From Gracilariopsis chorda (taxonomy: Eukaryota > Rhodophyta > Florideophyceae > Gracilariales > Gracilariaceae): a DNA stretch of 64,000 nt. Below are positions 2,841-64,000 of the stretch, one piece after another. Numbering within the stretch: position 1 is the first letter of the stretch; every line of letters begins with the position of its first letter. The DNA lies in the NCBI GenBank assembly GCA_003194525.1, contig NBIV01000179.1:96346-160345 (forward strand), read 5' to 3'. Both the position numbers and the translations under genes were made by a program. The notes under the pieces are model-generated. The model saw only the letters and a list, made by a program, of their open reading frames with translations. It searched no databases and was not told where the DNA came from.

Positions 2841-2964
2841 GATGAGATGGCCTAGAATTTGGAAGAACAAAGAAAGATCGATGGAAAAAGCAGTTCGCAA
2901 CGTGGATTGAACTTGATGTGCGAAGACTGGGTTTTGGAATGTTGATTTCGCGACAAGGCATGCC

Positions 2965-2972
2965 TTTTTATA
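2965..2972 (-). promoter_or_regulatory. TATA box of the cationic secreted-peptide gene
   Basis: Read on the minus strand this is TATAAAAA followed by GGC, about 125 bp upstream of the ATG at 2840. It lies downstream of the furthest in-frame upstream start, which supports 2840 as the true start. Confidence 0.55.
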
Positions 2973-6847: not shown

Positions 6848-7069
6848 TGTAACAATACGTTGCAGTACGCTACAGACTCCTCTCCTGTTACGTTAGAGTT
6901 TGTGATCGTTATCTATCTACTTACAACGATAGGATAGAAGATATAGAACGTTACCTTTATGTAGAGAAGCTAGCACTACATAAAGGCTTGAACAGCTGAT
7001 TCTGCGAGAGCTCGGCTAGACCCCAGCCACAAGCACATTCTACAACTTCTTATTTGCTTTTGTGTTACA
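6848..7069 (+). repeat. 5' LTR of the chromovirus
   Basis: 222 bp, beginning TGTA and ending TTACA. It matches 11915-12136 end to end without gaps and with about eight substitutions. The preceding five bases TTGCT are the target duplication. Confidence 0.93.
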
Positions 7070-7071
7070 TT

Positions 7072-7081
7072 TGGTAGCATC
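7072..7081 (+). promoter_or_regulatory. Probable primer-binding site
   Basis: TGGTAGCATC starts two bases after the 5' LTR. TGGTA at this place is the start of primer-binding sites that pair with initiator-Met-type tRNA 3' ends in many Ty3 elements. Only the first seven or so bases fit. Confidence 0.5.
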
Positions 7082-7133
7082 TTTTTGAAGTTCCCACCGC
7101 TCGGAACTCGCTCAGTCTCGCTCAGTTTACGCA

Positions 7134-8420: not shown

Positions 8421-11400
8421 CCACGCCGCACGCCAGTGCGGCTCGTTCAGTTCGTGTTGACACCCTTCCTCGCCTTTCCGCAGTCAATGCGCACCACTCC
8501 GAGGACATAATTTACCACGCATTTGTCAACGGTGTCCGTGTTGCGTTCCACCTGGACCCCGGCGCTTCGCACGCATTTATGTCCCCGGCTGCCGCAAAAC
8601 GATGCGGACTCCAACTCCATTCTTCTGCATGCACTCACGCGCAACTTGGCGATCACAGCTTGATTCCTGTGTTGCATGAAACTTCAGCCGAAGTGGACCT
8701 GAACGAAACTTCCACCACAGTATCTGTCTTTGTCATCGGGATGAACGAAGAGAATGACGGTGTTTCTCTCCTGACAGTAGGAAGTGAATAGTTGGGCGTA
8801 CTCAACCCGCACGTAGACTGGAAGAGACACACAATGACCATCAAGCGCGCAGATGGTTCAACGGCTACAGTGTATCCTCGTCACAATACGGCGGCGTCAG
8901 CCCGACCAAAGCCTCCCACGATGAAAACAATCTCCTTTAAACGACTGCGCAAGCTCTTCAAGCAACGAGCTTGTGAGTTGTATGCACTGCGGTTACAACA
9001 TCCTTCAACCGCTGTTGACTGTCATCCGGAATTGGCAGCCATCGTTGACACGTTCCGCGATGTCTTCAAGGAAGAGCTTCCGTACGAGCTTCCCCCACGC
9101 CGAGAACAGGACTTTGAGATAAATCTCAAACAGGATCCGCCACTGCCAGTTCGTCCAGTCATCCGATTTTCCAATGAAGAACTTCAGCTGCTTCGAAACA
9201 CCTTGGATGAGCTCCTCCGCAAAGGGCTCATTCGACCCTCTTCCTCCCCGTTTGGTGCACCGGTGTTTTTTGTCAGGAACAAGAGTGGTCAGTTACGAAT
9301 GGTATGCGACTGTCGCGCTCTCAATCGAATTACCATACCTGATTCCACCCCATTACCCCTCATCGACGAGGCTCTGGATCAAGTTGCCCGCGCGAAAGTG
9401 GTCTCCCAGATTGACTTAGTAGGTGCGTATCATCAGATGCGCATTCGTGATGAAGATTGTCACAAGACAGCCATCCGAACCCGCTTCGGATCGTTCGAAT
9501 GGAAGGTCCTATGCTTTGGACTAACGAATGCTCCAGCCACCTTCTCGAGGCTGATTGCATCAGCACTGAAGGACCTAAATGGAGAATGTCTGGTTCTGTA
9601 TATTGATGACATATTGGTATACAGCAAATCGATAACACAACACAAAGAGCATCTACGAAAGGTGTTCGTGGCTTTACGTAAGCACAAACTATACGCAAAG
9701 CTCAGCAAATGCGCTTTTGGTGTCAAGGAAGTAGACTTCCTTGGGTTACATGTGTCAGATAAGGGAGTATCCACCCAGGAAAGATTAACTGCGTCAGTCA
9801 GAGACTGGCCTACCCCACAGAATTTACGTCACATTCAACAGTTTGTGGGCCTCACGAACTTCTATCGCCGCTTCATTAAGGGCTACGCTCACATACTCTG
9901 GCCACTGACGGACCTACTGCGATCACATGAGTTCAAGTGGACCGCCCAACAGGAGTCAGCGTTTGATGCAATCAAGCTAGCCCTAACCACCGCTCCCGTC
10001 CTCGCCCATTATTCTCCAGACAAGACGTTGGTCTTGACAACTGACGCCTCGAAGTACGCAGGTAAGGCGACCCTCTCGCAAGACGGTCACCCCATTGCAT
10101 ACCTTTCCCATCACTTCTCGGATACTGAATCGCGATGGGACAGTGGAGACCAAGAACTCCTTGCTGTAATGATTGCCCTTCGTACTTGGGCCCCATGTCC
10201 ACGTGGCCGACATTTCGTTTTACGCACTGACCATGACCCGATTCGATATCTGTACTCGAAGCCGAAGCTTACCGGCCGCCAGTGCAGATGGCTCGACTAA
10301 ATTCAGGAGTACAACTTCGACATCTAACACATTGCCGGACGGTTGAACGTTGTACCAGATGCACTCAGTCGAAGACCCGACCACGCCCCCCACCTTCGCT
10401 CCATCGGGATACAGATCCCTAACCTCTCGGCATCAGTCCGTAATGACTACAGTGACGATTCGTTCGCTACTGAAATGCTCCGCACGCTTCGCGACACCTC
10501 TTACGAACCGTCGGCTCTTGTCCGACGTCATCTACGCAACTTTCGAATCGCGAATGACATGCTGTATTGGACTGGCGCAGGTTCGATCAGAATGTATATT
10601 CCTTCAACCGATCTTCGTCATACAGTGAAGAGGTACTTCCATGGAATAGGACATGTAGATGCCGACAAAGCCTATTATGTGGCACAGAAGTACGTATTCT
10701 GGCCTCAGATGTATGAGATTATCTCCATACACGTACGCAATTGTCGCGACTGTCATACGAACAAGTCATCAAACCGCCTCCGTCAAGGCTTGCTAAAACC
10801 TCTCCCTATCCCAAACCGTTGCTTAGAGATCGTAAACTTTGATTTCCTCACGGAAATCCCAACTTCCAGTGCCGGACATGACGCGATCTTAGTGTTGGTT
10901 GATAAGCTGTTCAAACAAGGAATTTTCGTACCGACTACGACGACTGCCACAGCCCGAGAAACTGCCCATTTGTTCGACGTTCATCTGCTTGCTATCCACG
11001 GTGTACCACATACACTGGTCAGTGATCGCGATCCCGAGGTAACCTCGAACTTCTGGAAGTCCCTCGTCGAACTTTTGAACATCCGCTCCAATCTTTCTAC
11101 CCACAACCATCCCCAGACTGATGGACAGTCCGAGAATATGATCCGAACGCTCTCTTCAATGCTGCGGGCGATTGTACAGAAGAATCCAACGGAATGGCAC
11201 CTGTATCTCCCTATAGCTCAGTTTGAATATAATGCGTCGAGATACGGTTCTACAAAGCTTGCGCCATTTGAAGTAGAGCTTGGATTCATTCCGCATACGC
11301 CTGTCACTCGTAAGCTCGAAGACTGCAGCGTTCGAGCACAGGAAGCATCCGGTGTCGTTGATCGCCGCAACGCGCTGCGTGCCCTGACTAGGGATCATCT

Positions 11401-11893
11401 CGCCGAAGTGGCTGCCCGCCAGAAGTACTATGCAGATCAGCGCGGCAGAGATGTCTCGTTCCAGACAGGCGATCTTGTTCTCCTTGAAGCCGACTCACTC
11501 TCGCTTGCGCGCAGGGCCACTTTGCCGAAGAAGTGGCAGCCTTGATATATCGGACCCTTCCGGATTGTGGATGTTCTTGGCCCCGTGAAATACCGTATTG
11601 AGCTCCCCCCCGCCATGAAGCGAGCCCACGACGTCATTCATGTGTCAAAGTTGAAAGCGTATCACGTTGGGAATCACGGCACTCTTGATATTGTGATCAA
11701 CAACGACGGTGAAGTGGAACAAGAAGTAGCAGATGTGCTGGAAAAGCGCAAGTTTCACAGACGTGTTTTCTACCTCGTGCGATTCACCAACGACACTCGC
11801 GATGACGCGGTTTGGCTCCCAACAACTTTGCTGAAGAACTGCAAAGACGCAGTTCGAAAAGTCAACCGAAAGGGAAAGCCAATGGGACATTGA
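8357..11893 (+). pseudogene. pol: pol of the chromovirus: protease, RT, RNase H, integrase, chromodomain; four in-frame stops
   Basis: A single frame runs through 8357-11893 with TAG at 8789, TAA at 10298, TAA at 10325 and TGA at 11543. The protease motif reads LDPGAS, where active retropepsins have D-S/T-G. RT has QIDLVGAYHQMRI, GLTNAPATF and the catalytic YIDD. RNase H has LTTDASKYAGKATLSQ. Integrase has the zinc-binding CRDC pair, then the DDE acids in FDFLTEIP, VSDRDPEV and QTDGQSENMIR. The C-terminal 60 residues form a chromodomain (EVADVLEKRKF...YLVRF...VWLP). Context around each stop suggests Trp, Gln or Arg codons changed by single C-to-T or G-to-A transitions. The Gln/Trp/Arg assignments rest on family consensus. 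Confidence 0.9.
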
Positions 11894-11900
11894 CTCATCC

Positions 11901-11914
11901 AAGGACGGGGTGAG
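11901..11914 (+). promoter_or_regulatory. Polypurine tract before the 3' LTR
   Basis: AAGGACGGGGTGAG, purine-rich with two pyrimidine interruptions, directly abuts the 3' LTR, the place where plus-strand priming occurs in LTR elements. Confidence 0.55.
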
Positions 11915-12136
11915 TGTACCAATACGTTGCAGTACGCTACAGACTCCTCTCCTGTTACGTTAGAGTTTGTGATCATTATCTATCTACTTACAACGATAGG
12001 ATAGAAGATATAGAACTTTAACTTTATGTAGAGAAGCTAGCACTACATAAAGGCTTGAACAGCTGATTCTGGCAGAGCTCGGCTAGACACCAGCCACAAG
12101 CACATTCTACACCTTCTTATTTGCTTTTGTGTTACA
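11915..12136 (+). repeat. 3' LTR of the chromovirus
   Basis: 222 bp, TGTA...TACA, aligned without gaps to 6848-7069. It is followed by the duplicated target TTGCT (12137-12141). Confidence 0.93.
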
Positions 12137-15727: not shown

Positions 15728-16714
15728 TCACATGACACTTCCTGAAACGTCTCCCAGTTGATCCGCACGTAACGATCGTTGACACGTCAACGTGAGCAAT
15801 TTGTGGTGCAAAATTTCCAGCTCGCGATTCTGCTCGGAGAGGGTGCGCGTATAATTCTCCAGCTGTCTTCGTCGCGCCACTTGTTTCTCCCGGTATCGAC
15901 GCGCGCTCTCCTTGTTGCGAAGCTTGCGTTGTGCGAGTTTGTCCTTGCATTTCTGCTCGAGCGAGACGGGGGCGGGGGCTGAGTTGGAGGCTGAGTTGGA
16001 GGCGGAGTTGGAGGCGGAGTCTGAGGCTGTGTTGGAGGCTGTGTTGGTGGCTGTGTTGGTGGTGGTGGCAGCTTTGGAAGCGGTTGGGGCGGGCGTCGGG
16101 GGTGGATTGCAGCGTGGAACTGCTGCGTTTTGGTGAGAGGGTGTTGTGGCGTGTGTGGCCGGTCTCGACGACGTGAGTGATGTTGTAGGCGTAGAGGACT
16201 GGAGTGAGGTCGGAGCAGTGGTATGAATGGGAACAGACAGCGACGAGAAGTTTGGGGGCGGGGCGTTGAAGAGCGGGGCGCAAGCGGAACGGGAGGAGGC
16301 GACGTTGGTAATAATGTTAGCGTCTCCAAGCGGGAACGGTTGAAGCGCGTGTTGCGGTGGTTGGGGTGGGGCGTGAGACGCCAAGGCAGTGGTTCCAAGT
16401 ACATGGGCGACGTTGATGGGCATGTTTTCCTGCTGCGGCGGGCTGGGAGGCGCGTCCAAATGGACGGGGGCGGGGAGGTGAAGAGGGGAGGACACGGCGT
16501 GTAGCGACGGGGAGGAGATGATTTGTGGGACGGTGGCAAGCGGCACTGGTGGGGTGTCGAACGGGTCTAGGACGAGGTTGGAGCGCGGTGGTGGCAGCTG
16601 CATGTCATCCGTTGCGAACGGGTCGTGGAGAAGGAGTTGGGAGGTGGAGAAGGGATCTTCTGCGCGGTCGTCGAAGAGCGGGGACGGAGGCAAAGTGTCC
16701 AACAGGATGTCCAT
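15728..16714 (-). CDS. bZIP transcription factor
   Basis: 328 residues from the ATG at 16712-16714 (MDILLDTLPP). The N-terminal 250 residues are low-complexity, rich in Pro, Ser, Thr and Ala, as in activation regions. They include a tandem Thr/Ser-Ala-Asn block encoded by a roughly 12-bp minisatellite (about 15985-16070). Near the C-terminus, about residues 258-312, lies a canonical bZIP: basic region LRNKESARRYREKQVARRR with the invariant N-x7-R spacing, then a leucine zipper with leucines in LENY, TLSEQ, ELEILH and KLLTL. It should act as a nuclear dimeric DNA-binding regulator; the target is unknown. The frame remains open a few codons further upstream but without an ATG. A CATAAAAA box lies about 200 bp upstream. 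Confidence 0.88.
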   Translation of the reverse strand: MDILLDTLPPSPLFDDRAEDPFSTSQLLLHDPFATDDMQLPPPRSNLVLDPFDTPPVPLATVPQIISSPSLHAVSSPLHLPAPVHLDAPPSPPQQENMPINVAHVLGTTALASHAPPQPPQHALQPFPLGDANIITNVASSRSACAPLFNAPPPNFSSLSVPIHTTAPTSLQSSTPTTSLTSSRPATHATTPSHQNAAVPRCNPPPTPAPTASKAATTTNTATNTASNTASDSASNSASNSASNSAPAPVSLEQKCKDKLAQRKLRNKESARRYREKQVARRRQLENYTRTLSEQNRELEILHHKLLTLTCQRSLRADQLGDVSGSVM

Positions 16715-16915
16715 TGCACTTGGGGGGGTTCGCAAGCGAGAAACTTTCCAGCAAGCGGGGGGGGAAGGGATGCGGAAGGGCGGCGAGGGGTAACCAAAAG
16801 GGGTGTTGCAAGTGCGAGGTGGGAGGGGGGGGGGGGTGGTGGAAGAAAGTTTAGGGGTGGGGATCTGTGGGTATGAGGGGGGGAGGGGGAGGGCTGGTGG
16901 TGCAACAAGGGGGCC

Positions 16916-16923
16916 TTTTTATG
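16916..16923 (-). promoter_or_regulatory. TATA-like box of the bZIP gene
   Basis: Minus-strand CATAAAAA followed by GGCC, about 200 bp upstream of the bZIP ATG, in an otherwise G/C-homopolymer-rich promoter. The same (C/T)ATAAAAA form occurs at the secreted-peptide and Hsp40 genes. Confidence 0.45.
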
Positions 16924-17388
16924 CGGGGGGGGGGAGGGCGGCGGTGAGGCGGCGCGTAACGGACGTGTTTTGGGTGGGACAGGCGCGTGCGGAAAGCTGT
17001 AACGGGACAATGGCGCACACGGCGCGCGTGTGCACGGCGCGTGGCCACGCGCACGCACGCACGCCACCCGCTGCGCATGGCGGCGCTGTCCAGCGCGCAC
17101 ACGTGTTGGACTGGTGCTGTAAGCGCTTACAGCTGAAGCAGCACGCCACAAGTGCGGAAACTGAAGCATATGGCTGTGAGCGCTATGACAGCGCACATAT
17201 ACATAACTTTTGCGGTGAAGGCGGTGACCGCTATGACAGCGCACATATACATAACTTTTGTGATAACCAAAAAAGCACTCGGCCACAAGTGCGGTGTGAA
17301 GCATGGCAGTGACCCCGCCCCCCCCTATGACAGCGCACATACATAAGTCATGTGATAACCAAAACCACTAGGACCCCCCTATGACAGC

Positions 17389-17415
17389 ATATATATATAT
17401 ATATATATATATATA
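17389..17415. repeat. (AT)n microsatellite in repeat copy 1
   Basis: Uninterrupted alternating A/T run inside the first 239-bp unit; shorter than its partner in copy 2. Confidence 0.9.
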
Positions 17416-17625
17416 CATGCACATATACAGCACAAAAGTGTCACCACACGCGTCAGAAGGCGGTGACCGCTATGACAGCGCACATATACATAACTTTTGT
17501 GATAACCAAAAAAGCACTCGGCCACAAGTGCGGTGTGAAGCATGGCAGTGACCCCGCCCCCCCCTATGACAGCGCACATACATAAGTCATGTGATAACCA
17601 AAACCACTAGGACCCCCCTATGACA

Positions 17626-17627
<2 letters not shown>

Positions 17628-17658
<31 letters not shown>
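17628..17658. repeat. (AT)n microsatellite in repeat copy 2
   Basis: Uninterrupted alternating A/T run inside the second unit, a few bases longer than in copy 1, about 40 bp beyond the anoctamin stop codon. Confidence 0.9.
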
Positions 17659-17661
<3 letters not shown>

Positions 17662-17695
17662 GCACATATACAGCACAAAAGTGTCACCACACGCG

Positions 17696-20494
17696 TCACT
17701 CCGCCTCGTCGTCCGAGGCGGAGTCGAACAGGTGCGCGTAGCGCGCGCACAGCTGCTGCTCGCTGTCGTCCACCTGCAGCAGGCTGCTTCCCCGGTACGC
17801 GTCCTTCCAGCCTTCATCAAACCAGCGCGCGACGTCAAAGTTCTGGCGCGCGATGCGGCGCAGCGTTCGGCGCGGAATGTCGCGCACCAGCGCGGCCATG
17901 GCCGCCTTGATGGCCAGCAGCACGTGCTCCACCACGAAGAACGCCACCACGCGGTACAGCAGCTTCTGCCACTTGTCCAGCGGCGACGAGCGCGCCCCCC
18001 GCCACAGCACCTCCACCGCGTCCGACGTGAACACCAGCAACGCCACGTTGGTCCACACCGACAGCACGTTGAGCACCTCCAGAATGGCGTACCACGCGCC
18101 GATATCCGCCGCGTCGTCCGCGTCCACGCGCTGAGACAGCACCAGGATTTTGTACGCATCCGTGCGCACTTCCAGCATGTTGTTCACAATGTTGATCACG
18201 CTGGCGAGCGGGAACGCCACGCCGAACAGCACCAGGAAGCCGAACTGAATCACCAGCTCGCTGTAGTCCTCCATCGTGGAGTGGTACTTGCCCAGCTTGC
18301 TCTCGTACACGTAGCGGTTGCGCGCGCTGCACACCACCAGCTCGTCGTGCTTGCTGCATTGCGACGAGCTGTCGCTCGCTTCCGCCGACGCGTCGTGCGA
18401 GTCGGCGCCGCTGCGGGCGCGTGCGGCGGGCAGAGCGCGCGACTTTCTGGAGCGCCAGCGAGCTTGCCATTGTTTGACGCGACTTGTTATCCACGGAAGT
18501 GCGATTTCCATCACTTGTCCCAACGTGGCCTTTGTGAGCACCAGTGACACCATCTGCGTCTCCAGTTCCCTCATGCATCCGCTTTGCATGTCGATGGCCT
18601 CATCCACGGGGCACGTGTCCTTGAGGTACTTTCGAACAAACGCAATGTACAACAACGAGATATCTACCGCAACAAAAAAAAAAAGCAAAACACACAAGTC
18701 AGCACCGAACTTTCAAGAAGAAAAAGAGAAAGCGCGCGCAAAAACGTACAGTTGGACACAAACATGAACGCAAAGCGTTTGTAAATGAGGCTGTTCTCGA
18801 AGTTTTGGTTGGTGCGATGGTTCTCGCGCCTGGTGAGGCGCAGCGACACGTCCCTCCAAATGGAGTCAAACACAAAGATAAGCACGCCGTTGAGCACACC
18901 GGGCAGCGCGTTTGCAAACGCGTTTCTCATGCGCCGCTGCGCCCACGCCACAATGTGGTTTCGGAACCACAGCAGCAAGAAGGTGAGCGCGCCAACGAGC
19001 ACCACAAACAAGGCCGTAACCGCGACCGACACCAACTTGGCGTTGCGCGCGCGGCGCGGGTGCTGGTACGGATTGCGCGGCAGTTGCAGGTTGTGTTGCT
19101 CGGGCGGTTGCACGCCCTGTTCCTCGCGGTGTGGCGAGTGCGCTTCGGACATGGCCAGGTCGTCCAGCGGGACGAAGCCGCCCTTGCAGTAGAAGCCATA
19201 GCGCGTCTCGCCCTCGAATTGGACGCGCGTGTCGTCGGCGGTCTCGTGCTGGTAGTCGTGCAAGCCCCAATGCGTGTTCACGAGCGCGGTTCTTCTCTTC
19301 CAGTTTTCCAGAAAGTACGTGGTCCACAGCACAATGGCGACGGCGAAGAGCCAGCGTACGATGTTGAGCGCCTCCTCGTTGCGCACGGTGCGGTACACGA
19401 CGTACACCGGGATGGAGAGGATGGCCAGCGGCAACAACCTGCGCGCGTAGAAGCTGACAAACACAAAGTAGAAGGTGACGCGCGCTACGCGACATAAAAG
19501 AGAGCAGGTGAGAATGAGACAGTTTTTTTGAATTCAAAAAAAAGATGATATGTGATATGATGTACACATCATACGTACCTCCCAAATAGTCCTTGAGCTG
19601 GTGGAACGGCGGTTGTGTGGCCGGGTTCCACCACTTGCGCCACACGACGTCGCGGATGAGGGCGCGTCTCTCCGGGGCGGAGTGCGGCGCAAACGCCTGC
19701 ACAATGCAACGTTCCATGAGAAGGCGCTCAATATTAAGGCCGCATCCCCAGTGTTCCTTCGACTGCAGCACGGCCAGCAGCAGCCGCACGCGCTCTGCGG
19801 GCGCAAAGTAGCACGCGCCGCGCTTCTCGCGCTCGGCGTTGACGAAGACGTGCTGGCGGTGGCGCGAGAAGGGGAGGTAGGCGCCGCCGTAGTGCGCGGC
19901 GAGGCGCAGCGGCATGCGCACGCGCTCGGCGCTGAGCTTGAGCTGGTGCGAAGGCAGCGCCAGTCGCAGCACGATGAGCTGCTCGGAGGCGACCAGCAGC
20001 TGCGAGAACACGAAGCGCGCGCTCTTGAGTCGCGCCAGGATGTCGACGCGCTGCTGCTCGGCGCGGCGCGACGCGGCGTCGCGCGAGGCGCCGCGCGGGG
20101 GGGGGATGGCGTCGAGGCGACGCTGCAGCGAGGGGGGGACGGGGAACACAAAGAGGTAGTCCCAACCCCAGGGCGGCTTGTCGCCGTACACGACGCTGCT
20201 GGAGGCGCTCGCGGAGGGCGGCGGCGGCGGCGGCGGCGGGTGGTGGGCGGGGGTGGCAGCGCGGGGGTCGTCGGGCAGCGGGTCGCTGAGGGCGTCGAAG
20301 AAGACGGTGCTGGTTCGGGAGGGCGGGCGCGCGGGGGCAGCGGGGGCGGCGGGGGCGGCAGGCGAGTGCGAGCGCGAGGAGGGCGGAGTGGGCGAGGCGG
20401 AGCGGGGGGCGCTGGGGGGCTGCGAACGCGGCGGACGGCGATGCATGGCGAGGCGGCGGCGGCGGCGGCGGGGGCGGCGGGCGTTGCATCGCAT
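17696..20494 (-). CDS. Anoctamin (TMEM16 family) membrane protein, three exons
   Basis: Exons 20494-19579, 19484-18750 and 18663-17696 join with introns 19485-19578 (94 nt) and 18664-18749 (86 nt). Both introns begin GTACGT and end TAG. The joined frame is 872 residues. Exon 1 has a Pro/Ala-rich disordered head, then anoctamin cytosolic sequence ending at KDYLG, the family's D-Y-(F/L)-G motif before the first membrane helix. Exon 2 has the first helices and a loop with LPGVLNGVLIFVFD and NSLIYKRFAFMFVSN. Exon 3 has the pore region EDYSELVIQFGFLVLFGVAF and NNMLEVRTDAYK, which keep the paired Glu and the Glu/Asp positions that bind Ca2+ in studied members. It is therefore a likely Ca2+-activated channel or lipid scramblase. 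Start: ATG at 20494; the ATG at 20446 is also possible. No upstream ATG lies in frame. Confidence 0.88.
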
Positions 20495-21363
20495 GTAGAC
20501 GACGGTGCGGAAATAGCGTTGGGAAGTGCGGCAGTAGCGAAGGTAACTGGCGGCAGCGGGGGCGCTGACAGCGCAGAGGAGCACGCGCTCAGCGAGCGCG
20601 CGCTGTCAGCGCGCTGTAAGCGCAACATGTGAGAGGAAGACGGTGGTCGTGATGCAGCCGCTCGTTATATGGCGCTCGCTACTGTAATGCTGATTGACAC
20701 AACAGCCACCACTTTTGAAACAACAAAGTTGTACTAGTCGGGCAATGATGTGATGATGGCAATAGATGACACCTGCACACGTGTATCGGCAACGACGGGC
20801 ATTGCAACGCTGGAGTACAGCGGAGTGCGGTCAGTCACAGTTGGACAGTTAAGTATTGCTAACAACAGTCATTTATGAAAGAAATGGCACATCAAAGGCC
20901 ACAAGTGTACTCAACGCTATATACAACTCAAACAATATCCATCAACGTACTGTTCTTGAAATCTTGAGTAGTTGTTGTTGTCCATCCTCAACGTATATAG
21001 AGCCAGTTCACTCGAACCCACTGTTTGAAATGAACCCCAATTATTACGCCACAAGCCGAAACAACACAGCCATCCTATATTCCAAATAACCAATCCTCCA
21101 AACTTGGTTGATTTGTGCATTCTTCTTACTTCAAAAATGCACTTAAAAAATCCACAACATTCTCAAATTATTCCGACTCAACACCCTTAAGTTTCTGTGT
21201 CCTTCTGTTGCTTTCCCAATGACTGCTTAGTTATCTAGAAAACTGTGCCTGCATCGTGATGAGCCTATTCCAAATGCATTGTTCTGCAACTCATACGTTT
21301 TCTGTCGAGCAGGTAAACTTACGTCTATTGACGGCTGCTCTCTAATCAACAAAAAATACACAA
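20495..21363. other. Anoctamin promoter region and unassigned sequence
   Basis: The first 200 bp are GC-rich and hold the anoctamin promoter; a possible TATA (ATATAA on the minus strand) lies near 20665. The rest is AT-richer with no gene seen and probably includes the left flank of the pogo-type element, whose terminal repeats I could not identify. Confidence 0.4.
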
Positions 21364-25513: not shown

Positions 25514-26517
25514 TGTAGTGCAAACCTCGTGGGTGGAGAGACACTCAAGGTGTTCGAAGCCTTGTTCCCCGGGTGGGTAGCTTGGCTCGCAGAACCCTCC
25601 ATATTGTGGTGCAATCCCGGTGTGGGAAAGGCACCCAAGGCAGCTCGAAGCCTTGCTCTCTTGGAGAGGTAGGCCCAGCTGGGTAGAGCCCTCCGTGTCC
25701 CGTATGACGGGTGTAACTCCGTCGGGAGCCTGGATGTACCTCGGAGGTTTAGGGGTTAGAACGGGTCGGAACCACGGCTGGTACGGAAGTAGCCTGCGAG
25801 CAGGGGAACAAAAGAGGGAAAGGGACCACCCGACGGGGGCGTGCGGAAAGCGGGAACAGACCCCGGAGGAGGGTGCCGATACACACGCACGAACACGCAC
25901 CGCGCGGCGGTTAGTAGATATGAGGGGAAGAGATGGTCTCACGGTCTCACGACACACGTCGGTAATATCAATACCCAAAACTGGGGCGGATATAGGGCCT
26001 GTACTGGCGGTCACACGACAACAATGAATACCACGAGTGGTCACAACCCACTGGGTACGACGAGCACGGTCTCCTCGGTGGTGCGAGTCGGGTGAAACTA
26101 CCGGGCAAGCGGTGTACCTCCGCGAGGAGTTAGACACTTCGCATGGCGAATAGAGTCAGAGCCGAACCCGTTCTTCTCTTCTTAGTGAGCTCGCCGTCGT
26201 GCGGCCGACGCTCAAGTACTAGGTCAGTGCAGTACAGTAGGTAGTGCACTAGCCTAAGTAAAATTAACCCCTAAACTACACTAAAATAAGTAGCCATTTT
26301 GGGCCCCCTGGCCGGGGCTGTAGCCACGTGTCCACCACCCTTGCCAGGCAAGTACCACAAAATATGAATGTTCCCATAACCACCCTGGGTAACCCGATCG
26401 CTAATTAGCCCGGTAAACGGGGGCTAAAATTCATGCATCCCGCTTCATCGCTCGCACCGAGTACACCTCAGATATGAGTTTCACCATCGCCCGTACGCGG
26501 GAATGTATTGCACTACA
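25514..26517 (-). repeat. Hairpin-rich LTR unit a (1004 bp)
   Basis: Bounded by TGTAGTGCAA and TTGCACTACA. On the minus strand it holds CTAGTACTTGAGCG followed by a CGTCGGCC...CGACGG hairpin, matching in layout the CTAGTACTTAGTGCG hairpin of the 59.5-kb element. GAGGGCTCTACCCAGCTGGG near its far end also has a near match in the 59.5-kb LTR (GGGCTCTACCCAACTGGG). Confidence 0.55.
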
Positions 26518-26529
26518 CATATCACACGG

Positions 26530-27363: not shown

Positions 27364-27368
27364 CTTAA

Positions 27369-27970
27369 TGTAGTGCAAACCCTGAAAGTTGGATATCACA
27401 TTCAAGGTGACCGGGGCCTTGGTCCCTGTGGAGGCAGATTCAGTAACAGAGCCCTCTGTATTTCTGTAATACGGGCGTAACTCCATAGGTATTTTAGATT
27501 GACCACAGAGGTGGATGAAGAAAGGTAAACCAGAGCCCGAAAGACGGTAAAACCAGATATCGGTGTGCCACGCGATACGGTGGTTTAGAGTATACCCGGT
27601 GAAGGGTGCCTTCCAACGACGGTGAAAAACCACCCGGTGGGTCGTGCGAAAAGCGGAAACAGACCTGACAAAGAGTGCACATGCACGGGATGTAGCGAAA
27701 GAATTACCAAATAAAGGGGCGATAACAGTACCACACGGTAGATAATGTCACACGCCAATTATAACACAGAGTATCTGTAGCTTTACTGAGCGGGTGAGTT
27801 GGGCGAACCGAATGCCGTGACTCCCCGCAAGTAGTAGTACATGGCGCAACGACGTCACAATCCAGAACCGGATACCTCAGGTGGAATTGAACAGTTATGA
27901 ATTACCGAAATCTCGGGTTAGCTTTACTTAGTGCTCTCGACGACGAAGTCGCGCTCACCTAAATAGTTAC
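27369..27970 (-). repeat. Hairpin-rich LTR unit c, partial
   Basis: Starts TGTAGTGCAAACC like unit a, in the same orientation, and continues with related blocks: AGAGCCCTCTGT, ATACGGGCGTAACTCC, and near 27930-27960 a CTTAGTGCTCTCGACGAC hairpin. It lacks the opposite terminus, so it is truncated or older than the CTTAA insertion next to it. Confidence 0.45.
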
Positions 27971-57156: not shown

Positions 57157-59487
57157 TTTGATGTACGAGCCAAGCCTTAATCCGGATTACACCTATATCG
57201 CTGCGTCCAAAGAAGGAGTAGTGCTACACTCTGCCTTGTTCTTGAGATGTCGCTTTGCCCATCAGCGTCAGCGCCCACCTTCTCACCTTGTGCGCGTTAC
57301 TTTACCGTGTGCACATTCCTGCCCCATAATGTCTGCAGCAGCGCACTTTCGAAACGAAGCTTCAGTTGACGGGCCATCGCTGACGTCGGGCCACAGCAGG
57401 GTTGTCTCGCTCTGTGTAGCTTGATGAAGTTGTTCTGCTCAACTCCGTTCCATTGAAGCACATGCGTAGTCAGCCACCGATATGTTACATGAACACAGAG
57501 GTACTCCGGAAGCAAACATGTTTCTTTCTTGACAAACAGAACCGCATTGTTTACGCGATTAGTGATGAGCATTCATACCTCGCTACCCCGACTCCCTTTC
57601 ACGATATGGATGTATGTATACCATGCGCATAGCCAACAAGAAGTTGACGCATAGCTACATAATTCTGTTTTGAGCTGCCCAACTCATAGCTCAAGTCCGT
57701 GGGAGAAGAATCATGTTGGCGGTACATTTCACGGTATGGATGCTGCCTCTGTGGCCCAAGGTTTACAGTATCGACCCAATACCAAATTTACTTTTGAAAG
57801 ACCTACGGAAGCGACCGCTGTTCTATCCGTGGCGATGTGGACGTACTCCTCGGCCATATCCTGATGCACTTCACCATTCTTTGACACTTGCTAGACTTCG
57901 CACGACGTTTTATCCCCACGGCTTGGAAATGATATGCCGCTTCCGTCTAGGAAGGGATAGAAAGCAACAATGGCCTTCGGAACCGGGACCAACAAACACG
58001 AAAAACGGTTGGATGGACGGCGTATCGTCATAGTTCTAGATTGAACCGTGATTGTTTTGCGAGAGGCGTTGGAGCATCTCCACCGGGAAGCGCTAAAACT
58101 CAAAAACGGTGGAAATTGAAATTTATAGCGAGCGCTATAGCGCTTTCATGAAACTTTCCTTCTTGTGAGTGTCATTTTGCACGAGGAAACGACACCGGAC
58201 GACGACAGTACTTAATATGCCCCCTTCTTAGCTAGAAGAGGACAAGAAATAAGTTCGTAGCTCGAGAGTACCAGCACAGGCGTGCAATGCCAATGTAGTG
58301 AATAGGCACAAACCGTGACAAAGAACCAAAATGCAAGGTAGAAAGGAAACCCGGTAGTGACCACACAACATCCCGGGACAATGTAGCAAAGCGACTACAC
58401 CAGCGGATAACCAACGCAATCAAAATCTTAGATCTAGCTTAATGCTGATGATCAGTTTTAGTATAGCGCAATGGTTAACACTTCTGACAAAAACCTTAGC
58501 TCTTTTACGTGAACAAAGTGTACCGTGCTACATAAGACGGAATCAAACAAAAACAGTGTAGTACGATCACGCAAGAAGATGTAAAAACCCGAGCCGCAAG
58601 AATTAAAGAGGTGAGTGATGAAAAGTGTGATTAATGGCAAGGAATAGTAGACTGCTCTAAATTAAAGTGGGTGTTGCCAAAAAATGGAGACGTGGTCTGG
58701 CTCTGATTGGCTTGGAGGTCACCAAACTCCGGCTTTTATAGACAATTTTTCTATTTGATTACCTCCTAGTTCTTCATACTAGGTTTAAATAAGCACTCAG
58801 AATAACCTGTTATTTGACACATTCTTTATATGAGGGACCAGCTTAGCAAACGGCGTTATACCTCGTAGGGTATTTGTGTCTTTGAGTGGACGAAACCGCC
58901 GGTTGGCGGAGTTTGAGCGTTGAAGAGGAGCATTCACGACATGATGAGCAATAAAGGAGACATGAAAGGTTTTTGGTAATTAACCGAGTGATTGCAAATA
59001 ATGCACAGTATGATTTGGGAGTGCAGGTTTAGACGACGGATAGCTGGCGTGCTAAAGCGGTGGAAAAGAAGCTGCGGAGCGGCCGGTAGCTTCGGTAGCA
59101 ACGGTAGTTGGTGCTTTTGCGGCAGCGTCGAACGAACAAGCGGGCGGCATGCATACTTATGCGTGAGCATGCCCTCGCCATGATGGCAGAGCATGTAAAT
59201 TTCGGAGGCATGCCCTATCATCATGGCAAGGGCATACGTCCACGTTCACACTTCTCCAGCGGTGCGTTGCCAACCGTAACGACGACATACACTTCTGGAA
59301 CGCTAGAAATCTTGCCATTGGCAGAATTTTAGTGAGCTTTTTACATTCGTTGCTAAATAGAATTGACCAATCGAATACAAGCACTTATGTCTTTGTGATC
59401 ACATGCAAAGTCCACGACTTTTATGAATTGCAACGCCCTCAGGCAGGGATTCTGGGTACTTGAACGCTTTCCCGATATTATCGGTTG
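57157..59487. other. Intergenic / unassigned sequence
   Basis: No supported gene; frames are under 110 codons with no motif. A perfect 14-bp palindrome AGCGCTATAGCGCT lies near 58127-58141. The right limit is the start of the hairpin-rich LTR element. Confidence 0.4.
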
Positions 59488-60248
59488 TGTAGTGTGTATA
59501 TGAATTACGCCCCACTATGGTGGATATGGACACGTGGGACACGGTTATGGGTCAATTGGCGGTTGACCACAGTAGTGGATGTTGCCACGAAATGTGGAGT
59601 ATTTTAGTTAATTTTATTTATTATTTTCACACCCATTTCTGGGAAGCTAGTACTTAGTGCGACGGCGCACTGCCGTCGCACCAGTAAACCTTCCCCAACA
59701 AGGGACCCCAACCTGGGGAATTGGCTCTAGTTGTTGCCACTTGCGCGCGTACTCTACTCCTCCTTGGAGGGAAACGCCGTGAACCACGGGACATCTAACC
59801 CCCTTGCACATCTAAAGGGACCCATCACTGGGAGTATAATTGTTCCAATTGCATTGGTGTTTCGCCCTGTATAGGGATATTGTTACCGGCATCGCCGTAT
59901 CTGTTCGTCGCTCTCGCGACTCACATCGTCCTCTCTTCCTCTTCTTCGCCCTTCCTTTTCCCCCTTTTTAGGGTAGCACCTCCCGCTATCCACGGCCCTC
60001 GTGTGCGCATCCGCTCACACACCCCCACTTACGTGGAAACATACCTCTACTGAGGATCACACCCCGCTCACGCGGATACCGATTCTTCGCCTTCACCTCC
60101 CTGCGCGATTCGCGACAGGTGTCCCTGGTCTTACAAACCGGCTTCGCCGTGACGCCTCTGGTAGGGCTCTACCCAACTGGGTTCACCTCGTGAGAGGAAG
60201 ATCCCGAACGTCTTTCGGTGTTTTTCCCCTTTGGGGCATTGCACCACA
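59488..60248 (+). repeat. 5' LTR (probable limits) of the hairpin-rich element
   Basis: Starts TGTAGTGTG, ends TTGCACCACA; related ends TGTAGTGCAA/TTGCACTACA bound the units at 25.5-27.4 kb. It contains CTAGTACTTAGTGCG leading into a 9-bp-stem hairpin (TGCGACGGC/GCCGTCGCA, about 59658-59680), an AT-rich tract before it and a pyrimidine-rich tract (about 59931-59967) after it. The right limit rests on the terminal similarity only. Confidence 0.5.
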
Positions 60249-60383
60249 AAGTGATCTCCTGACTTAGAATCGGTTTTTGTTTTCCCTCTTACGAGGTTTG
60301 TTTTTATTTACCGGAAGTTCCGTGATCGTTTCCCGTCGTAACGGTATTTTCTCAGGTCGAGAAATCCCTCCGACGCGGAGCCA

Positions 60384-62528
60384 GTGGTTACGCGTAGTCG
60401 CTCCCGCGACAACGCGGACACTTCCGAAGTTCGGTTCGTACCCCGTATCCCCATACGGACAAGTTCCAGCCGTGCTGGCGCCGCTTCATCGCGGAATGAT
60501 ACCCCCGACCGGGAACCCCGGAACCTCCTTTTGCCCTCGTTATCACCCCCGCAGGGGAATGCAGCATCGACTCCGGCTGTTGCCGCAGTGCCCCAGGCAC
60601 CCCGGCCTGCTCCCGCTGTCGCGGCTTCAAGCCCCCGTGGAACGGGCGATAACACCCCCCAGGGGACTTCCCTGGAATCCCAGGTCCGCGCTCTGTGGAC
60701 CGCCCATGACACCCTTGTAGGGGAACTAAAATCCCTCCAAGAGGTGGTCTCGGCAACCCGCGTAAAGGAGGTCGCCGAGGAACTCCGTATTTTACGGTCT
60801 GACGTCAACTCCGTGTTGGAGAGTTTGGGACAACCCACCACCTTCATCGAAGGAGTTGAAGCCCGATTTGATCGGATTGGTGCCCGCCTGGAGACGCTGG
60901 AGCAGTTCGTCCTCATGGACAAATCATCCCCGGGTGATCCGGTAAACGAGTCATCGCACAACGACCAGCTTGCTGGGAAGAAGAAACGCCGTCATCGACG
61001 GAAACACCACCGAAAATATTCGGACTCCGATTCTTCGACATCGTCGGACTCATCCCGAAACCATTCGGTTAGCTCGAGCTCCTCGGACTCCGACTCGGAG
61101 GACGAGAAGCGAGGCTACTCCTCCCGCTCGAAGCGGTCATCGGCCACTGAAGGTGTGGTCCGAACCCGCCAGAAGGGGAGAAGACACCCCGGTCTCCGGG
61201 AATTGAAACCGACAAACCCGGAGTACCGGAAGCTTTTATCATACGGGTACTACCGGCTCGAAGACTCGTCATTTGGAGGTACGCCCCGTGGTACGGGAAA
61301 GGTGCGAGAATGCATTAAGCGAATGCAGCTCTCGCTCCGCAACCAGTATTTTACTGGAGAGGACCCAGTCTTAGTACTGGATTTCCTATCCCGCTTTGTA
61401 GCGGAGGCCGATATCCTCGGTATGAATGAGGGACAAGCCTATTTGGCTTTACCGTATTTCTTACGGGGAGTGGCGGAGGACCAATACACCTCTGTCAGAG
61501 GATCTTCTCGCGCCTCCGAGGGAGGAGTTACTTGCTGGCCGGAGGCTGTGCAGTATCTTCTGCGCTCCTACGCCACCAACACCGCTATTCAGCAGGCTAT
61601 CCTCGTTTTGCGAGATACACGCCAGCGTGCTGGAGAGACCGAGACCGAATACTCGGTGCGCCTTAACAAGGCTTTCCACAGATGTGGTAACGTATACCCC
61701 GCTGGGGAGCGCAGTACCATGTTCATTGATGGTCTTGACCCGGCAATCCGGAGTTTAGTTACCCGTTATTGGGAGGAAAAGCGGAGGATCACCTACCTCG
61801 AGCTAGTCCAACACGCCCGAGCGGAAGGGGATGCACTTCGTGCAAGAACTCCGAACAATCGGTCTAAATCCGCCAAGGCGTTGTTGCTGGAAAGTGAAGC
61901 TTCCTCTCTCCCGCTCACCGCGGATGGGAACCCTGGACAGGGATTTGATACCGTGCATTTAGTGCAGGGGGATGGTGTGTCGATACCCACCAGTGATTTG
62001 CCGTCAACGACGGAGATGACCCGTGATACGGGAACGGAAGACCCCGTTTTGTACAGTGGTAACAGTCGGGTTCAACCCCAACGACTCCCGTTTTCAAACG
62101 GTCAATCCCGTTATCAACGGCCTGGATGGACTGACACCCGCCCTGCGGTTCGCTTCTCCGATACTCGGAATAATAATCCGCGTGTCGCGGTGTTGGCTCT
62201 CATATGCCACCTGTGCTATACCCATGGCCATACCTCACCTCAGTGTATTTGTTCACTGAAGGATATGGCCAAGGTAGTGGCAAATTATGAGGCCCTCACT
62301 CCAGAGGAGAAACGTTCCGTCCCGACGGCTTCCTACCTCCGTGCTAAAACGGACTTTTCCGACGCCCTACCACAGACCCCGCGTGCTCGGCAAGCTTCAT
62401 ACACCCCGATTCGGGAGATCACGCAACCAACCGTTGCAACCCCCGCTTATGCGGATAGAAACCCCCGTCAACGGGATGAAGCACTCGTTGTCGAGGAAAC
62501 CAACCCACCGCCGAAGGCGGAAAACTAA
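60384..62528 (+). CDS. gag: Gag polyprotein of the hairpin-rich Ty3-type element
   Basis: Open for about 714 codons; the head has no ATG (GTG at 60384) and the first in-frame ATG is about 180 codons in, so the start is unresolved. Order: Arg/Ser-rich head; Pro/Ala-rich linker; coiled coil (about residues 110-180, LKSLQEVVSATRVKEVAEEL); a very basic and Ser/Asp-rich block (KKKRRHRRKHHRKYSDSDSS); the Gag core with MFIDGLDPAIRSLVTRYWEE; and a CCHC zinc knuckle C-x2-C-x4-H-x4-C (CHLCYTHGHTSPQC, from residue 608). It ends GAA AAC TAA. The protease frame is -1 relative to gag and open across this stop, so -1 frameshifting is possible, though the site is not a canonical slippery heptamer. Short inverted repeats are as dense here as in the LTR. 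Confidence 0.82.
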   Translation: MVTRSRSRDNADTSEVRFVPRIPIRTSSSRAGAASSRNDTPDREPRNLLLPSLSPPQGNAASTPAVAAVPQAPRPAPAVAASSPRGTGDNTPQGTSLESQVRALWTAHDTLVGELKSLQEVVSATRVKEVAEELRILRSDVNSVLESLGQPTTFIEGVEARFDRIGARLETLEQFVLMDKSSPGDPVNESSHNDQLAGKKKRRHRRKHHRKYSDSDSSTSSDSSRNHSVSSSSSDSDSEDEKRGYSSRSKRSSATEGVVRTRQKGRRHPGLRELKPTNPEYRKLLSYGYYRLEDSSFGGTPRGTGKVRECIKRMQLSLRNQYFTGEDPVLVLDFLSRFVAEADILGMNEGQAYLALPYFLRGVAEDQYTSVRGSSRASEGGVTCWPEAVQYLLRSYATNTAIQQAILVLRDTRQRAGETETEYSVRLNKAFHRCGNVYPAGERSTMFIDGLDPAIRSLVTRYWEEKRRITYLELVQHARAEGDALRARTPNNRSKSAKALLLESEASSLPLTADGNPGQGFDTVHLVQGDGVSIPTSDLPSTTEMTRDTGTEDPVLYSGNSRVQPQRLPFSNGQSRYQRPGWTDTRPAVRFSDTRNNNPRVAVLALICHLCYTHGHTSPQCICSLKDMAKVVANYEALTPEEKRSVPTASYLRAKTDFSDALPQTPRARQASYTPIREITQPTVATPAYADRNPRQRDEALVVEETNPPPKAEN

Positions 62529-62545
62529 CTAAGGGAGTCTCCCCT

Positions 62546-63463
62546 TTGGGAGAGGCGTCCTCAAGAACGAGGCTGTTGGCGCCCGAGGCGTCCTCGCCTC
62601 GCTCCCCGGTGAAAGTCCTCTCGAGGAAAGACACTGCCGACGCGGACTCTGCGCACCTCGGTGTGTTGCGTCGCCCGTGGATACGGAGTAAAAATCCCCG
62701 GATTCCCGGTAGAGTCTTGGTCTTGGCCAAACGCAATTATAAGGTCTATGCCGACCTTGGCCTTGACCCCCAGTTTATGGTGAGGTTTCTGACCGTCCTG
62801 GATACAGGTGCAGGCCCCAACTTTGTTGTGGAATCATTGTTACCCCCGCTTGTGCGGTCGCGTATCCGCTCTGACGCGGTCCCCGACATTTCGGATGCGA
62901 ACAACAATCCGTTACAAACGGTGGGCACAGTGTACCTCTTCGTGAGACTTGGTACCTCTGTGGTGAAGTTGAACTTCATCGTTTGCCGTTCATTGGCAGC
63001 ACCAGTCATACTGGGATGTGATTACTGCGACAGATTTGTCGACGCAATCAGGCCCCGCCTCAGGCGTGTAGAACTTGACGACGGTTCGTCGGTTCCGATT
63101 GTTCGCCGCCCGCTAAAGCGGTCCTCTCGGACACAAGTTGCGCTCCCTGCTGCGCAGGAACCACCGCCCACGTCCCGCGAGTCCACCAAGCTCCGCGTCG
63201 CTGCCTCGGTTTCTATACCGGCTGAGTCCCAAGTCTGGGTGCAGGTAAATTCCCGTCAACACGGTCTTCGGGTTATACAACCCCTCGCCTCGTTGTACGA
63301 GAAATCCCAGCTGGCGCTGGCTAATGGAATTGTCTCCATTTCCCCGGATGTCCCTTTCTGGATATTGGTTGCCAACCTTGGCAAACACCCCCAGTATCTG
63401 GTCAAACACCAAGTAGTTGGGAGTGTAACCCCCATTCTATGGGAATGTTGCCAACAAAGATGA
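62546..63463 (+). CDS. pro: Aspartic protease region of the hairpin-rich element
   Basis: About 305 codons in the -1 frame relative to gag, no ATG (TTG at 62546), and open further upstream across the gag stop. The retropepsin motif VLDTGAGPNFV (Asp codon at 62801, residue 86) is intact, and the second conserved Gly segment VILGCDYCDRFVD follows at the usual distance. The rest is a spacer before RT. It stops with TGA at 63461. Confidence 0.78.
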   Translation: MGEASSRTRLLAPEASSPRSPVKVLSRKDTADADSAHLGVLRRPWIRSKNPRIPGRVLVLAKRNYKVYADLGLDPQFMVRFLTVLDTGAGPNFVVESLLPPLVRSRIRSDAVPDISDANNNPLQTVGTVYLFVRLGTSVVKLNFIVCRSLAAPVILGCDYCDRFVDAIRPRLRRVELDDGSSVPIVRRPLKRSSRTQVALPAAQEPPPTSRESTKLRVAASVSIPAESQVWVQVNSRQHGLRVIQPLASLYEKSQLALANGIVSISPDVPFWILVANLGKHPQYLVKHQVVGSVTPILWECCQQR

Positions 63464-63522
63464 CGGCCGCCGATGTACTCGGAGTTACCACCTCTTCTGA
63501 GGAGTTCGCCCCGCCGTCCTAA

Positions 63523-64000
63523 GACGTCAAGTCTAAGGAGGGGGAGGAAACCGCTACTTCAGCGTCGAACATACCGAGTAACTCGGAATTGCGAACCATA
63601 CCTGTTCCACAGGACAATGCTCCATCGAGCAACCACCGGATTGATCCGGAAAAAGCACTGGAAGCGCTGGACTTCAGCCACGTGCCAGAGTCGCACCGCG
63701 ACAAACTCCGTACTATGTTACGGGAATTCACCACAATGTGGGATGGCTCGCTTGGCGAGATTAATGCAACGGAACACCGGATCGATTTAATCCCCGGTGC
63801 GCGACCGGTTGCACAACCCCCTTACAGGGCAGGTCCGAAAGCTTGGGAAGAGGAGCAGTCCCAAGTGGACAAGATGCTCCGCGCAGGTGTAATTGAGCCC
63901 GCTCAATCACCCTGGGCATCCCCAGTTGTACTGGCTTTAAAGGCCGACGGAACCTGGAGGTTCTGTGTCGACTACCGCCGGCTCAATGCCGTGACTGTTA
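63523..64000 (+). CDS. pol: Reverse transcriptase N-terminal part, cut by the window end
   Basis: Frame 1 of the window, open from just after TAA (63520-63522) to the end. It has the Ty3-type opening: LREFTTMWDG, then TEHRIDLIPGARPVAQPPYR, MLRAGVIEPAQSPWASPVVL and WRFCVDYRRLNAVT. This frame differs from the protease frame; an ATG at 63460 begins the same frame but is cut off by the TAA. Either a second frameshift or an indel separates protease and RT. The catalytic xxDD lies beyond the window. Confidence 0.85.

What the first reader, a model, noticed from the sequence alone, without database searches (positions are those of the whole stretch)
59488..64000. A retrotransposon saturated with short, unique inverted repeats in both LTR and coding DNA
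Reading along the element, a new short hairpin appears about every 20-40 bp. Checked examples: 60368-60380 (CTCCG/CGGAG), 60397-60410 (GTCGC/GCGAC), 60443-60458 (CCGTAT/ATACGG), 60466-60478 (CCAGC/GCTGG), 60509-60521 (CCGGG/CCCGG), 61343-61357 (CCAGTA/TACTGG), 61391-61404 (CCGCT/AGCGG), 61452-61466 (CCGTA/TACGG), 62088-62101 (CCGTTT/AAACGG), 62108-62120 (CCGTT/AACGG), 63574-63586 (CCGAG/CTCGG), 63601-63613 (CCTGT/ACAGG), 63636-63649 (CCGGA/TCCGG). Stems of 5 bp or more with 3-6 nt loops are expected about once per 256 nt at equal base composition; I see roughly eight in 60,350-60,850. Each stem is different, so this is not an inserted repeat family. Nearly all open with C and close with G, a form identical on both strands. 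The pattern ignores the border between LTR and gag. Possible causes: selection for a highly structured genomic RNA; quasi-palindrome correction by template switching during reverse transcription; or a recognition code for a packaging or silencing factor.
Basis: partly seen in the sequence, partly recalled or inferred. Interest (0 to 1): 0.9.

Follow-up and report, generated by a model that had tools for sequence, protein, structure and literature searches.

The report
Retrotransposon written in tiny hairpins
A jumping gene family in what is probably a red alga carries hundreds of different 11-14-letter hairpins of one standard shape along its whole length, and comparison with close relatives shows that evolution tends to keep the paired letters while the loop letters drift, so the hairpins very likely do something, though what reads them is not yet known.

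Summary
The motif is specific: 5'-CC, 2-3 base pairs, a 3-4-nt loop, GG-3', 11-14 nt in all. Perfect 12/13-mers with CC...GG ends are 21.7-fold enriched, with GG...CC ends 0.8-fold. A full copy of this 11.5-kb chromodomain Ty3/Gypsy element holds 216 motif hairpins, 212 distinct, spread evenly over LTR, gag, pol and an antisense frame. Related families share the motif; remoter ones show it weakly or not. Stems are conserved: synonymous third positions are 77% identical in stems against 47% outside in the closest family pair, and 2 of 74 stem sites differ against 47 of 307 in a diverged LTR; against the remotest gag family the signal is absent. Best reading: dispersed recognition hairpins of the genomic RNA, perhaps bound by Gag for packaging. 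Wobble pairs are not favoured, so a DNA-level reader remains possible. Eight paper searches listed nothing like it.

The parts
59424..64000 (+). 5' part (about 40%) of an 11.5-kb Ty3/Gypsy element carrying the mini-hairpin array; it runs to the end of the window, which is also the end of its contig
   Evidence: 102 motifs (overlaps counted) in 59001-64000, expected 9.0
59424..60248 (+). 5' LTR (TG...CA), itself full of motif hairpins
   Evidence: paired with a 3' LTR in three other copies; 5-bp target duplications read by eye in two of them
60342..62528 (+). gag open frame (728 aa): basic tract, Ser/Asp-rich tract, capsid region, one CCHC zinc knuckle (motifs recognised by eye)
   Evidence: 56 motifs against 6.3 in synonymous shuffles
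62480..63463 (+). open frame with a DTGA protease-like motif (recognised by eye), hairpin-rich
   Evidence: (62480-64000: 32 against 5.4); no Pfam match
63523..64000 (+). open frame running into the start of the reverse-transcriptase region (by eye), hairpin-rich
   Evidence: no Pfam match for this piece; copy L034 continues into RVT_1, RNase H, H2C2, rve
60443..60458 (+). example hairpin CCGTAT-CCCC-ATACGG
60785..60797 (+). example 13-mer CCGTA-TTT-TACGG (5 bp, 3-nt loop)
60989..61001 (+). 13-mer CCGTC-ATC-GACGG; in family L059 the same place reads CCGC-AAAAA-GCGG: fourth pair T-A becomes C-G, fifth pair is lost
59777..59789 (+). LTR hairpin CCGTG-AAC-CACGG; the pair 59781/59785 is G-C here, A-T in 15, mismatched A/C in 9 and G-C in 2 of 29 other copies (3 without data on both sides)
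25650..26520 (-). LTR sequence of related hairpin-bearing family B, lying inside another element

Best explanation
A clade of chromodomain-bearing Ty3/Gypsy LTR retrotransposons, in a host that is probably a red alga, carries a dispersed array of standard mini-hairpins: 5'-CC + 2-3 free base pairs + 3-4-nt loop + the 2-3 complementary bases + GG-3'. 216 lie in 11.5 kb with the LTR counted once, roughly one per 50 nt. Shown by computation: the array, its geometry, its even spread over coding and non-coding parts, its concentration in one clade, and conservation of stems (including synonymous sites) with free loops among close relatives. Inferred: the array works in the plus-strand genomic RNA as many weak copies of one recognition element. 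A protein touches the CC/GG base of the stem and the stem backbone and ignores loop sequence. The likeliest reader is the element's own Gag (basic tract plus CCHC knuckle), so that the genomic RNA is picked out, compacted and packaged by many Gag contacts along its length rather than by one 5' signal. My rough odds: selected array 0.95; acts in the genomic RNA 0.65; reader is Gag, for assembly or packaging 0.4.
For: Excess over dinucleotide and synonymous-codon shuffles. Fixed geometry: stem5/loop3 73 against 7.1, stem4/loop4 104 against 27. Orientation-specific ends: CC 145 against 6.7, GG 6 against 7.2; in relatives CC 62 against 5.7, GG 7 against 5.4. Even density, 3-9 motifs per full 300-nt bin (overlaps counted) across LTR, gag, pol and the antisense-ORF region, which fits a property of the whole genomic molecule rather than of any protein. 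Preferred centre spacing of 16-24 nt and few at 28-32. Conservation: variants shared by >=3 copies average 1.1% in stems, 2.7% outside, 4.9% in loops, while rare variants are 16.4%, 15.1% and 13.7%; third codon positions OUR-L059 0.77 stem, 0.43 loop, 0.47 outside, p=3.6e-8; diverged LTR 2/74 stem, 7/35 loop, 47/307 outside, p=0.0012. Coincident hairpins OUR-L059 18 against 6.3 under a codon-conditional null, maximum 14 of 300. Plus-strand asymmetry in our family: A follows the hairpin in 51% of 233 against 32% of 681 other GG, also in the LTR and the antisense-ORF region; GNRA loops 12 against 4.1, p=0.001, its reverse complement 7 against 5.2. The four aligned Gag families share the basic tract and the zinc knuckle.
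Against: Nothing here ties Gag to the hairpins. Wobble pairs are not favoured: near-hairpins with one G.T 2.13-fold, with one A.C 2.15-fold; aligned hairpins with exactly one broken pair show G.U in 7, A.C in 17, other in 42. An RNA helix that accepts A-U freely would be expected to accept G-U. The plus strand is not more stable than the minus strand; in our element it is less so. The 3' A preference is weak in the relatives taken together (44% against 38%) and reversed in family B integrase (23% against 40%, 13 hairpins). In relatives other stem ends are also enriched (CT 4.8-, CG 4.2-, AC 3.8-fold), so the CC clamp is less exclusive there. GNRA was one of six loop patterns tested; a DNA-type GNA triloop is high in the relatives (8 against 3.0, p=0.011) but not overall (14 against 9.2, p=0.12). 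Stem conservation is significant in only 4 of 12 gag comparisons and 2 of 5 integrase comparisons. In yeast Ty3 nt 429-4979 are dispensable for retrotransposition in trans (PMC4974528, passage), so dispersed packaging hairpins would differ from the best-studied relative; UTR and POL sequences are nonetheless reported to matter for its packaging.
Confidence: 0.4

Rival explanations
1. DNA-level reader: the hairpins or dyads act in single-stranded cDNA or in double-stranded element DNA, recognised by a nuclear or element-coded factor (for example in cDNA compaction, integration-complex assembly or chromatin).
For: Strict Watson-Crick pairing with G.T no better than A.C, as expected if both strands must pair; a motif that reads the same on both strands; A-T and G-C pairs both common inside stems.
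Against: Plus-strand asymmetries of flank and loop in our family; 4-5-bp stems are unlikely to extrude from duplex DNA (general knowledge); a duplex-DNA reader has no evident reason to require complementarity of freely varying inner bases.
Confidence: 0.22
2. RNA shielding: short hairpins everywhere keep the element RNA from pairing with antisense or small RNAs, or otherwise hide it from host RNA silencing (a form of genome-scale ordered RNA structure).
For: Whole-molecule coverage; a Dicer-like open frame lies beside one copy (L035 4205-7099, named by eye), so the host may have RNA silencing.
Against: Small folding-energy gain, no wobble preference, orientation-specific CC/GG ends and no enrichment of GG...CC, and long gaps more common than chance rather than rarer: 72 of 231 gaps are 40-80 nt, 52.5 in random placement.
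Confidence: 0.15
3. Mutational origin: template switching during reverse transcription turns imperfect inverted repeats into perfect ones, without function.
For: Perfect Watson-Crick stems, no wobble preference; reverse transcriptases switch templates (general knowledge).
Against: Fixed length of 11-14 nt and CC...GG ends; stems of close relatives are conserved, not fast-changing, in coding and LTR DNA; little or no motif in the 6848-12136 element and in family F.
Confidence: 0.06
4. A host factor (for RNA decay, export or translation) reads the hairpins and the element exploits it, rather than Gag.
For: CC...GG 12/13-mer hairpins are scarce in 67.8 kb of other sequence from the same genome, 7 against 16.2 expected, Poisson P=0.009, while GG...CC are 14 against 16.4, as if host transcripts avoided them.
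Against: Small numbers, and CC was the lowest of 16 end types so P is not corrected; the stretch mixes genes and other repeats; AC-ended hairpins are also low (13 against 20.6).
Confidence: 0.15

Closest known systems
Dispersed RNA packaging signals (MS2, STNV, parechovirus; also hepatitis B virus)
   Same: Many small stem-loops spread through a genome, degenerate in sequence, proposed to be bound by the shell protein during assembly (search listing and abstract starts of PMC6281560, PMC3593212, PMC4751978, PMC5431903, PMC7612645).
   Different: The parechovirus abstract names 60 RNA sites and the hepatitis B virus abstract a loop motif; here there are 216 hairpins with free loops and fixed CC/GG stem ends, in an LTR retrotransposon, and no binding is shown.
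Yeast Ty3 and Ty1 genomic RNA
   Same: Ty3/Gypsy or other LTR element with Gag and a structured genomic RNA.
   Different: Ty3 cis-acting sequences were delimited to the ends, nt 429-4979 dispensable in trans (PMC4974528, passages); its well-folded core covers about 19.4% of the sequence (PMC11381356, abstract, passages). No array of standard hairpins was mentioned in the passages seen.
Genome-scale ordered RNA structure (GORS) of RNA viruses
   Same: Pairing spread over coding and non-coding parts of a whole genome.
   Different: GORS is defined by excess folding energy (recalled). Here the energy gain is small and the excess lies in one hairpin geometry with fixed ends.

Membership tests
Ty3/Gypsy LTR retrotransposon (with chromodomain) | LTRs with TG...CA and short target duplication | tested here: met
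   LTR pairs in three other copies, 5-bp duplications in the two whose ends were printed
Ty3/Gypsy LTR retrotransposon (with chromodomain) | RT - RNase H - integrase order, chromodomain behind integrase | tested here: met
   RVT_1, RT_RNaseH, Integrase_H2C2 and rve in L034; Chromo in L035 (another copy). The window itself ends in the RT region
Ty3/Gypsy LTR retrotransposon (with chromodomain) | Gag with capsid fold and zinc knuckle | tested here: inconclusive
   7 of 28 relatives carry PF03732 (P0009); CCHC seen by eye; no Pfam match for the window's Gag; structure prediction unavailable
Dispersed RNA packaging signals | Multiple stem-loops of shared geometry across the genome | tested here: met
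Dispersed RNA packaging signals | Evolutionary conservation of the stem-loops | tested here: met
   for close relatives; lost at larger distance
Dispersed RNA packaging signals | Shared sequence motif in the loops | tested here: not met
   loops vary; only a mild GNRA excess
Dispersed RNA packaging signals | Binding by the shell protein and effect on assembly | not testable with these tools
   needs binding and packaging assays
Genome-scale ordered RNA structure | Folding energy well below shuffles across the genome | tested here: inconclusive
   -1.7 kcal/mol per 60 nt in our element, -0.17 in L060 gag although hairpin-rich
Known Rfam element | Match to an Rfam family at its gathering score | tested here: not met
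   (window 59400-64000): one sub-threshold hit only (pemK, E 0.48)

The most novel reading that the evidence does not exclude
The element carries a genome-wide nucleic-acid code of a kind not described before: hundreds of interchangeable 11-14-nt hairpins defined only by stem geometry and a CC/GG base, laid through all coding and non-coding DNA and read by a dedicated partner; related clades may use another hairpin size (10 nt in families D and E, small numbers), so the code and its reader may co-diverge.
Probability: 0.4. Interest if true: 0.95.

Novelty: new variant of a known kind. Interest (0 to 1): 0.85.

Why it matters
It is an unusually clear case of a whole transposable-element genome constrained by a structural code laid over its proteins, visible without experiments and with built-in replicates (several families, dozens of copies).

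Tried and rejected
Chance or base composition: rejected by dinucleotide shuffles. Codon usage or protein: rejected by synonymous and codon-order shuffles and by conservation in the non-coding LTR. An inserted repeat family: 212 of 216 hairpins are distinct. Thermodynamic stability as the driver: GG...CC hairpins are not enriched and the energy gain is small. Known RNA family: none. Relatives outside this genome: none confirmed in viral contigs or genome contigs with one integrase query, so the array could not be tested in other species' DNA. One search was a faulty alignment (copies in mixed orientation) and is not used; one search replaced it. One search stopped on a script error after its hairpin counts and nucleotide identities were printed; redid the rest.

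Results against my reading: no wobble preference; flank asymmetry weak in relatives and reversed in one; third-position stem conservation not significant in 8 of 12 gag comparisons (all 6 with L060, and L059-L058 and L058-L059 at p 0.14 and 0.068) nor in 3 of 5 integrase comparisons; coincident hairpins do not exceed the null maximum for OUR-L060, L058-L060, L059-L060 or B-C. With L033 in place of L037 the LTR test is p=0.07. In one search only 11 shared stem variants exist, so the reference-defined test is modest (p=0.013). The 18 rve loci were picked from 150 listed by spread of score, not at random, and several are copies of one family. The gag families L058, L059 and L060 may belong to integrase families B and C; they were not linked.
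Full report
What is there. The stretch from 59424 to the end of the window is the 5' part of an 11.5-kb LTR retrotransposon; the contig ends with the window. A 2.2-kb query found 40 places, this one included, at 97-98% identity (this one 100%) in the same 91-Mb genome (only the best 40 of 1238 candidates were scored). The LTR is 825 bp here, with TG...CA ends; three other copies have LTR pairs, and the two whose ends were printed have 5-bp target duplications (read by eye). The window holds a gag frame (728 aa); other copies add RVT_1, RNase H, H2C2 and rve domains, a chromodomain, and a 609-aa antisense open frame before the 3' LTR (no Pfam match). The host is probably a red alga: of 28 Gag relatives, the 5 that carry a name are all from Agarophyton chilense. 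That is an inference from protein matches only.

The observation. All 13 listed hairpins are present. In gag, 56 of the refined motif stand against 6.3+-2.4 when synonymous codons are shuffled, maximum 14 of 200. Per kilobase, the refined motif is near expectation through most of the window, high from 59 kb on (102 against 9.0, overlaps counted), and raised at 25-28 kb (18 against 3.7). The latter holds an LTR of a related family.

The motif. A table of stem by loop over the two pieces of copy L033/L035 shows excess at stem 5 loop 3 (73 against 7.1), stem 4 loop 4 (104 against 27), stem 5 loop 4 (27 against 7.2) and stem 4 loop 3 (67 against 27), falling to 42 against 27 at stem 4 loop 6 and mostly near expectation beyond. 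CC-to-GG spacing peaks at gaps of 7-9 (198 against 88 at gap 8), and the pair just outside the clamp is paired less often than chance at gap 9 (20 against 44), so stems tend to stop at the CC/GG. Among perfect 12- and 13-mers, CC...GG is 145 against 6.7 and GG...CC 6 against 7.2; in the relatives CC...GG is 62 against 5.7, with other ends also raised. Both orientations would give much the same stability, so sequence and not energy is selected. In 60-nt windows folding energy is only 1.7 kcal/mol below shuffles, and 0.17 in L060 gag, which still has 16 motifs against 2.1; families D and E, weak in the motif, gain 1.1 and 1.3.

Layout. There are 233 non-overlapping motifs with both LTRs, covering 25% of the bases, and 216 with the LTR counted once, 212 distinct. 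Density is 3-9 motifs per full 300-nt bin, overlaps counted, throughout. Centres prefer 16-24 nt apart and avoid 28-32; in the relatives the numbers are too small to judge. Gaps of 40-80 nt are also over-represented, 72 of 231 against 52.5.

Distribution. Of 18 rve loci picked from 150 listed, five from two further families (B, 66% and C, 57% identical to ours in the integrase region) are rich in the motif: 16, 15, 15, 18 and 16 against 2.2-3.5. Three of family D have 9-11 against 3.8-4.9, seven of family E 4-6 against 2.0-2.9, two of family F 4 and 0 against 2.0 and 1.3, and the single locus L045 3 against 1.4. Gag loci of three other gag families (L058/L061, L059, L060) are rich, 16-29 against 2.1-3.4; they may be the gags of B and C, which was not tested. 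The trait therefore follows one clade.

Selection. Among 29 copies plus the window copy, variants in one or two copies are about as common in stems as outside (16.4% against 15.1%, loops 13.7%), but variants shared by three or more copies are rarer in stems (1.1%) than outside (2.7%) or in loops (4.9%); these are averages over every copy used in turn to define the hairpins. Read simply, decay after insertion is neutral while the replicating lineages are constrained. Between families, at third codon positions of unchanged amino acids, OUR-L059 identity is 0.77 in stems (101 sites), 0.43 in loops (30) and 0.47 outside (318), p=3.6e-8; OUR-L058 is 0.57, 0.35 and 0.45, p=0.045; the signal is absent against L060, and 8 of the 12 ordered gag comparisons are not significant. 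In a diverged LTR copy (L038), 2 of 74 stem sites differ against 7 of 35 loop and 47 of 307 outside sites, p=0.0012; with L033 as the other copy p is 0.07. Coincident hairpins were compared with a null that shuffles codons among sites with the same partner codon and amino acid: OUR-L059 18 against 6.3 (maximum 14 of 300), OUR-L058 11 against 3.9 (maximum 10), OUR-L060 5 against 2.3 (maximum 8, not exceeded); integrase OUR-B 7 against 2.2 (maximum 6), OUR-C 8 against 2.7 (maximum 7), B-C 4 against 2.3 (maximum 5, not exceeded). Examples where both sides of a pair changed and pairing was kept: CCCT-TGT-AGGG / CCTC-GTG-GAGG (third and fourth pair), CCGTC...GACGG / CCGC...GCGG (fourth pair), CCAGC-GT-GCTGG / CCAGA-AA-TCTGG (fifth pair), and in the YSVSE codons CTCCG-TAT-CGGAG / CTCGG-TGT-CCGAG (fourth pair, amino acids unchanged).

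Which molecule. Evidence is mixed. For the plus-strand RNA: A follows the hairpin in 51% of 233 against 32% of 681 other GG, also in the LTR and in the antisense-ORF region, so coding does not explain it; GNRA loops 12 against 4.1 while the reverse complement is 7 against 5.2. For strand neutrality or DNA: G.T is tolerated no better than A.C, the plus strand is not more stable, and the A preference is weak in the relatives. I weigh the RNA reading at about 0.65.

Mechanism. The pattern needs a reader that recognises a short helix with a CC/GG base and ignores the loop. Even coverage of the whole transcribed unit points to the genomic molecule. The element's Gag has a basic tract and a CCHC knuckle, conserved in the four aligned families, and is the natural candidate; many contacts along the RNA would select and condense it. 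This is inference; no tool result links Gag to the hairpins. Dispersed stem-loop packaging signals are the closest described idea (abstract starts seen). Yeast Ty3 differs: the passages seen say that nt 429-4979 are dispensable in trans, although UTRs and POL matter for packaging.

Literature. Searches listed no paper whose title or abstract start describes such an array; that is a statement about those eight searches of open-licence papers only. Of two papers I saw passages (PMC4974528; PMC11381356, abstract and passages); of the others only listings.

Noticed in passing
window 25650-26520 and about 27367-27950: LTR of related hairpin-bearing family B (40 best places listed, this one included; pairs 10.67 kb apart), lying between 144-nt direct repeats at 23571 and 28828; an LTR-like second piece begins with the same TGTAGTGCAAACC words (by eye).
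   Followed up: partly
L035:930-2756 (-): 609-aa antisense open frame between the chromodomain and the 3' LTR, no Pfam match; motif density there is as high as elsewhere.
   Followed up: partly
L035:4205-7099 (+): Long host open frame next to one copy that looks Dicer-like by eye (not tested).
   Followed up: no
L055 (family D), L043 (family E): Hints of a different hairpin size, 10 nt: D stem 5 loop 0 10 against 1.9; E stem 4 loop 2 13 against 4.7. Small numbers.
   Followed up: partly
67.8 kb of other sequence (window outside the element, and flanks of copies): CC...GG 12/13-mer hairpins are scarce, 7 against 16.2 expected, while GG...CC are 14 against 16.4; possible host avoidance, lowest of 16 end types.
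   Followed up: partly
window 16000-21000: Many hairpins of longer stems (77 against 22.3; stem>=6 44 against 5.8) in GC-rich, repeat-bearing sequence; no CC...GG motif excess, so a different cause.
   Followed up: partly
window 59169-59235: 27-nt inverted repeat (85% complementary, 13 nt between arms) just before the LTR.
   Followed up: no
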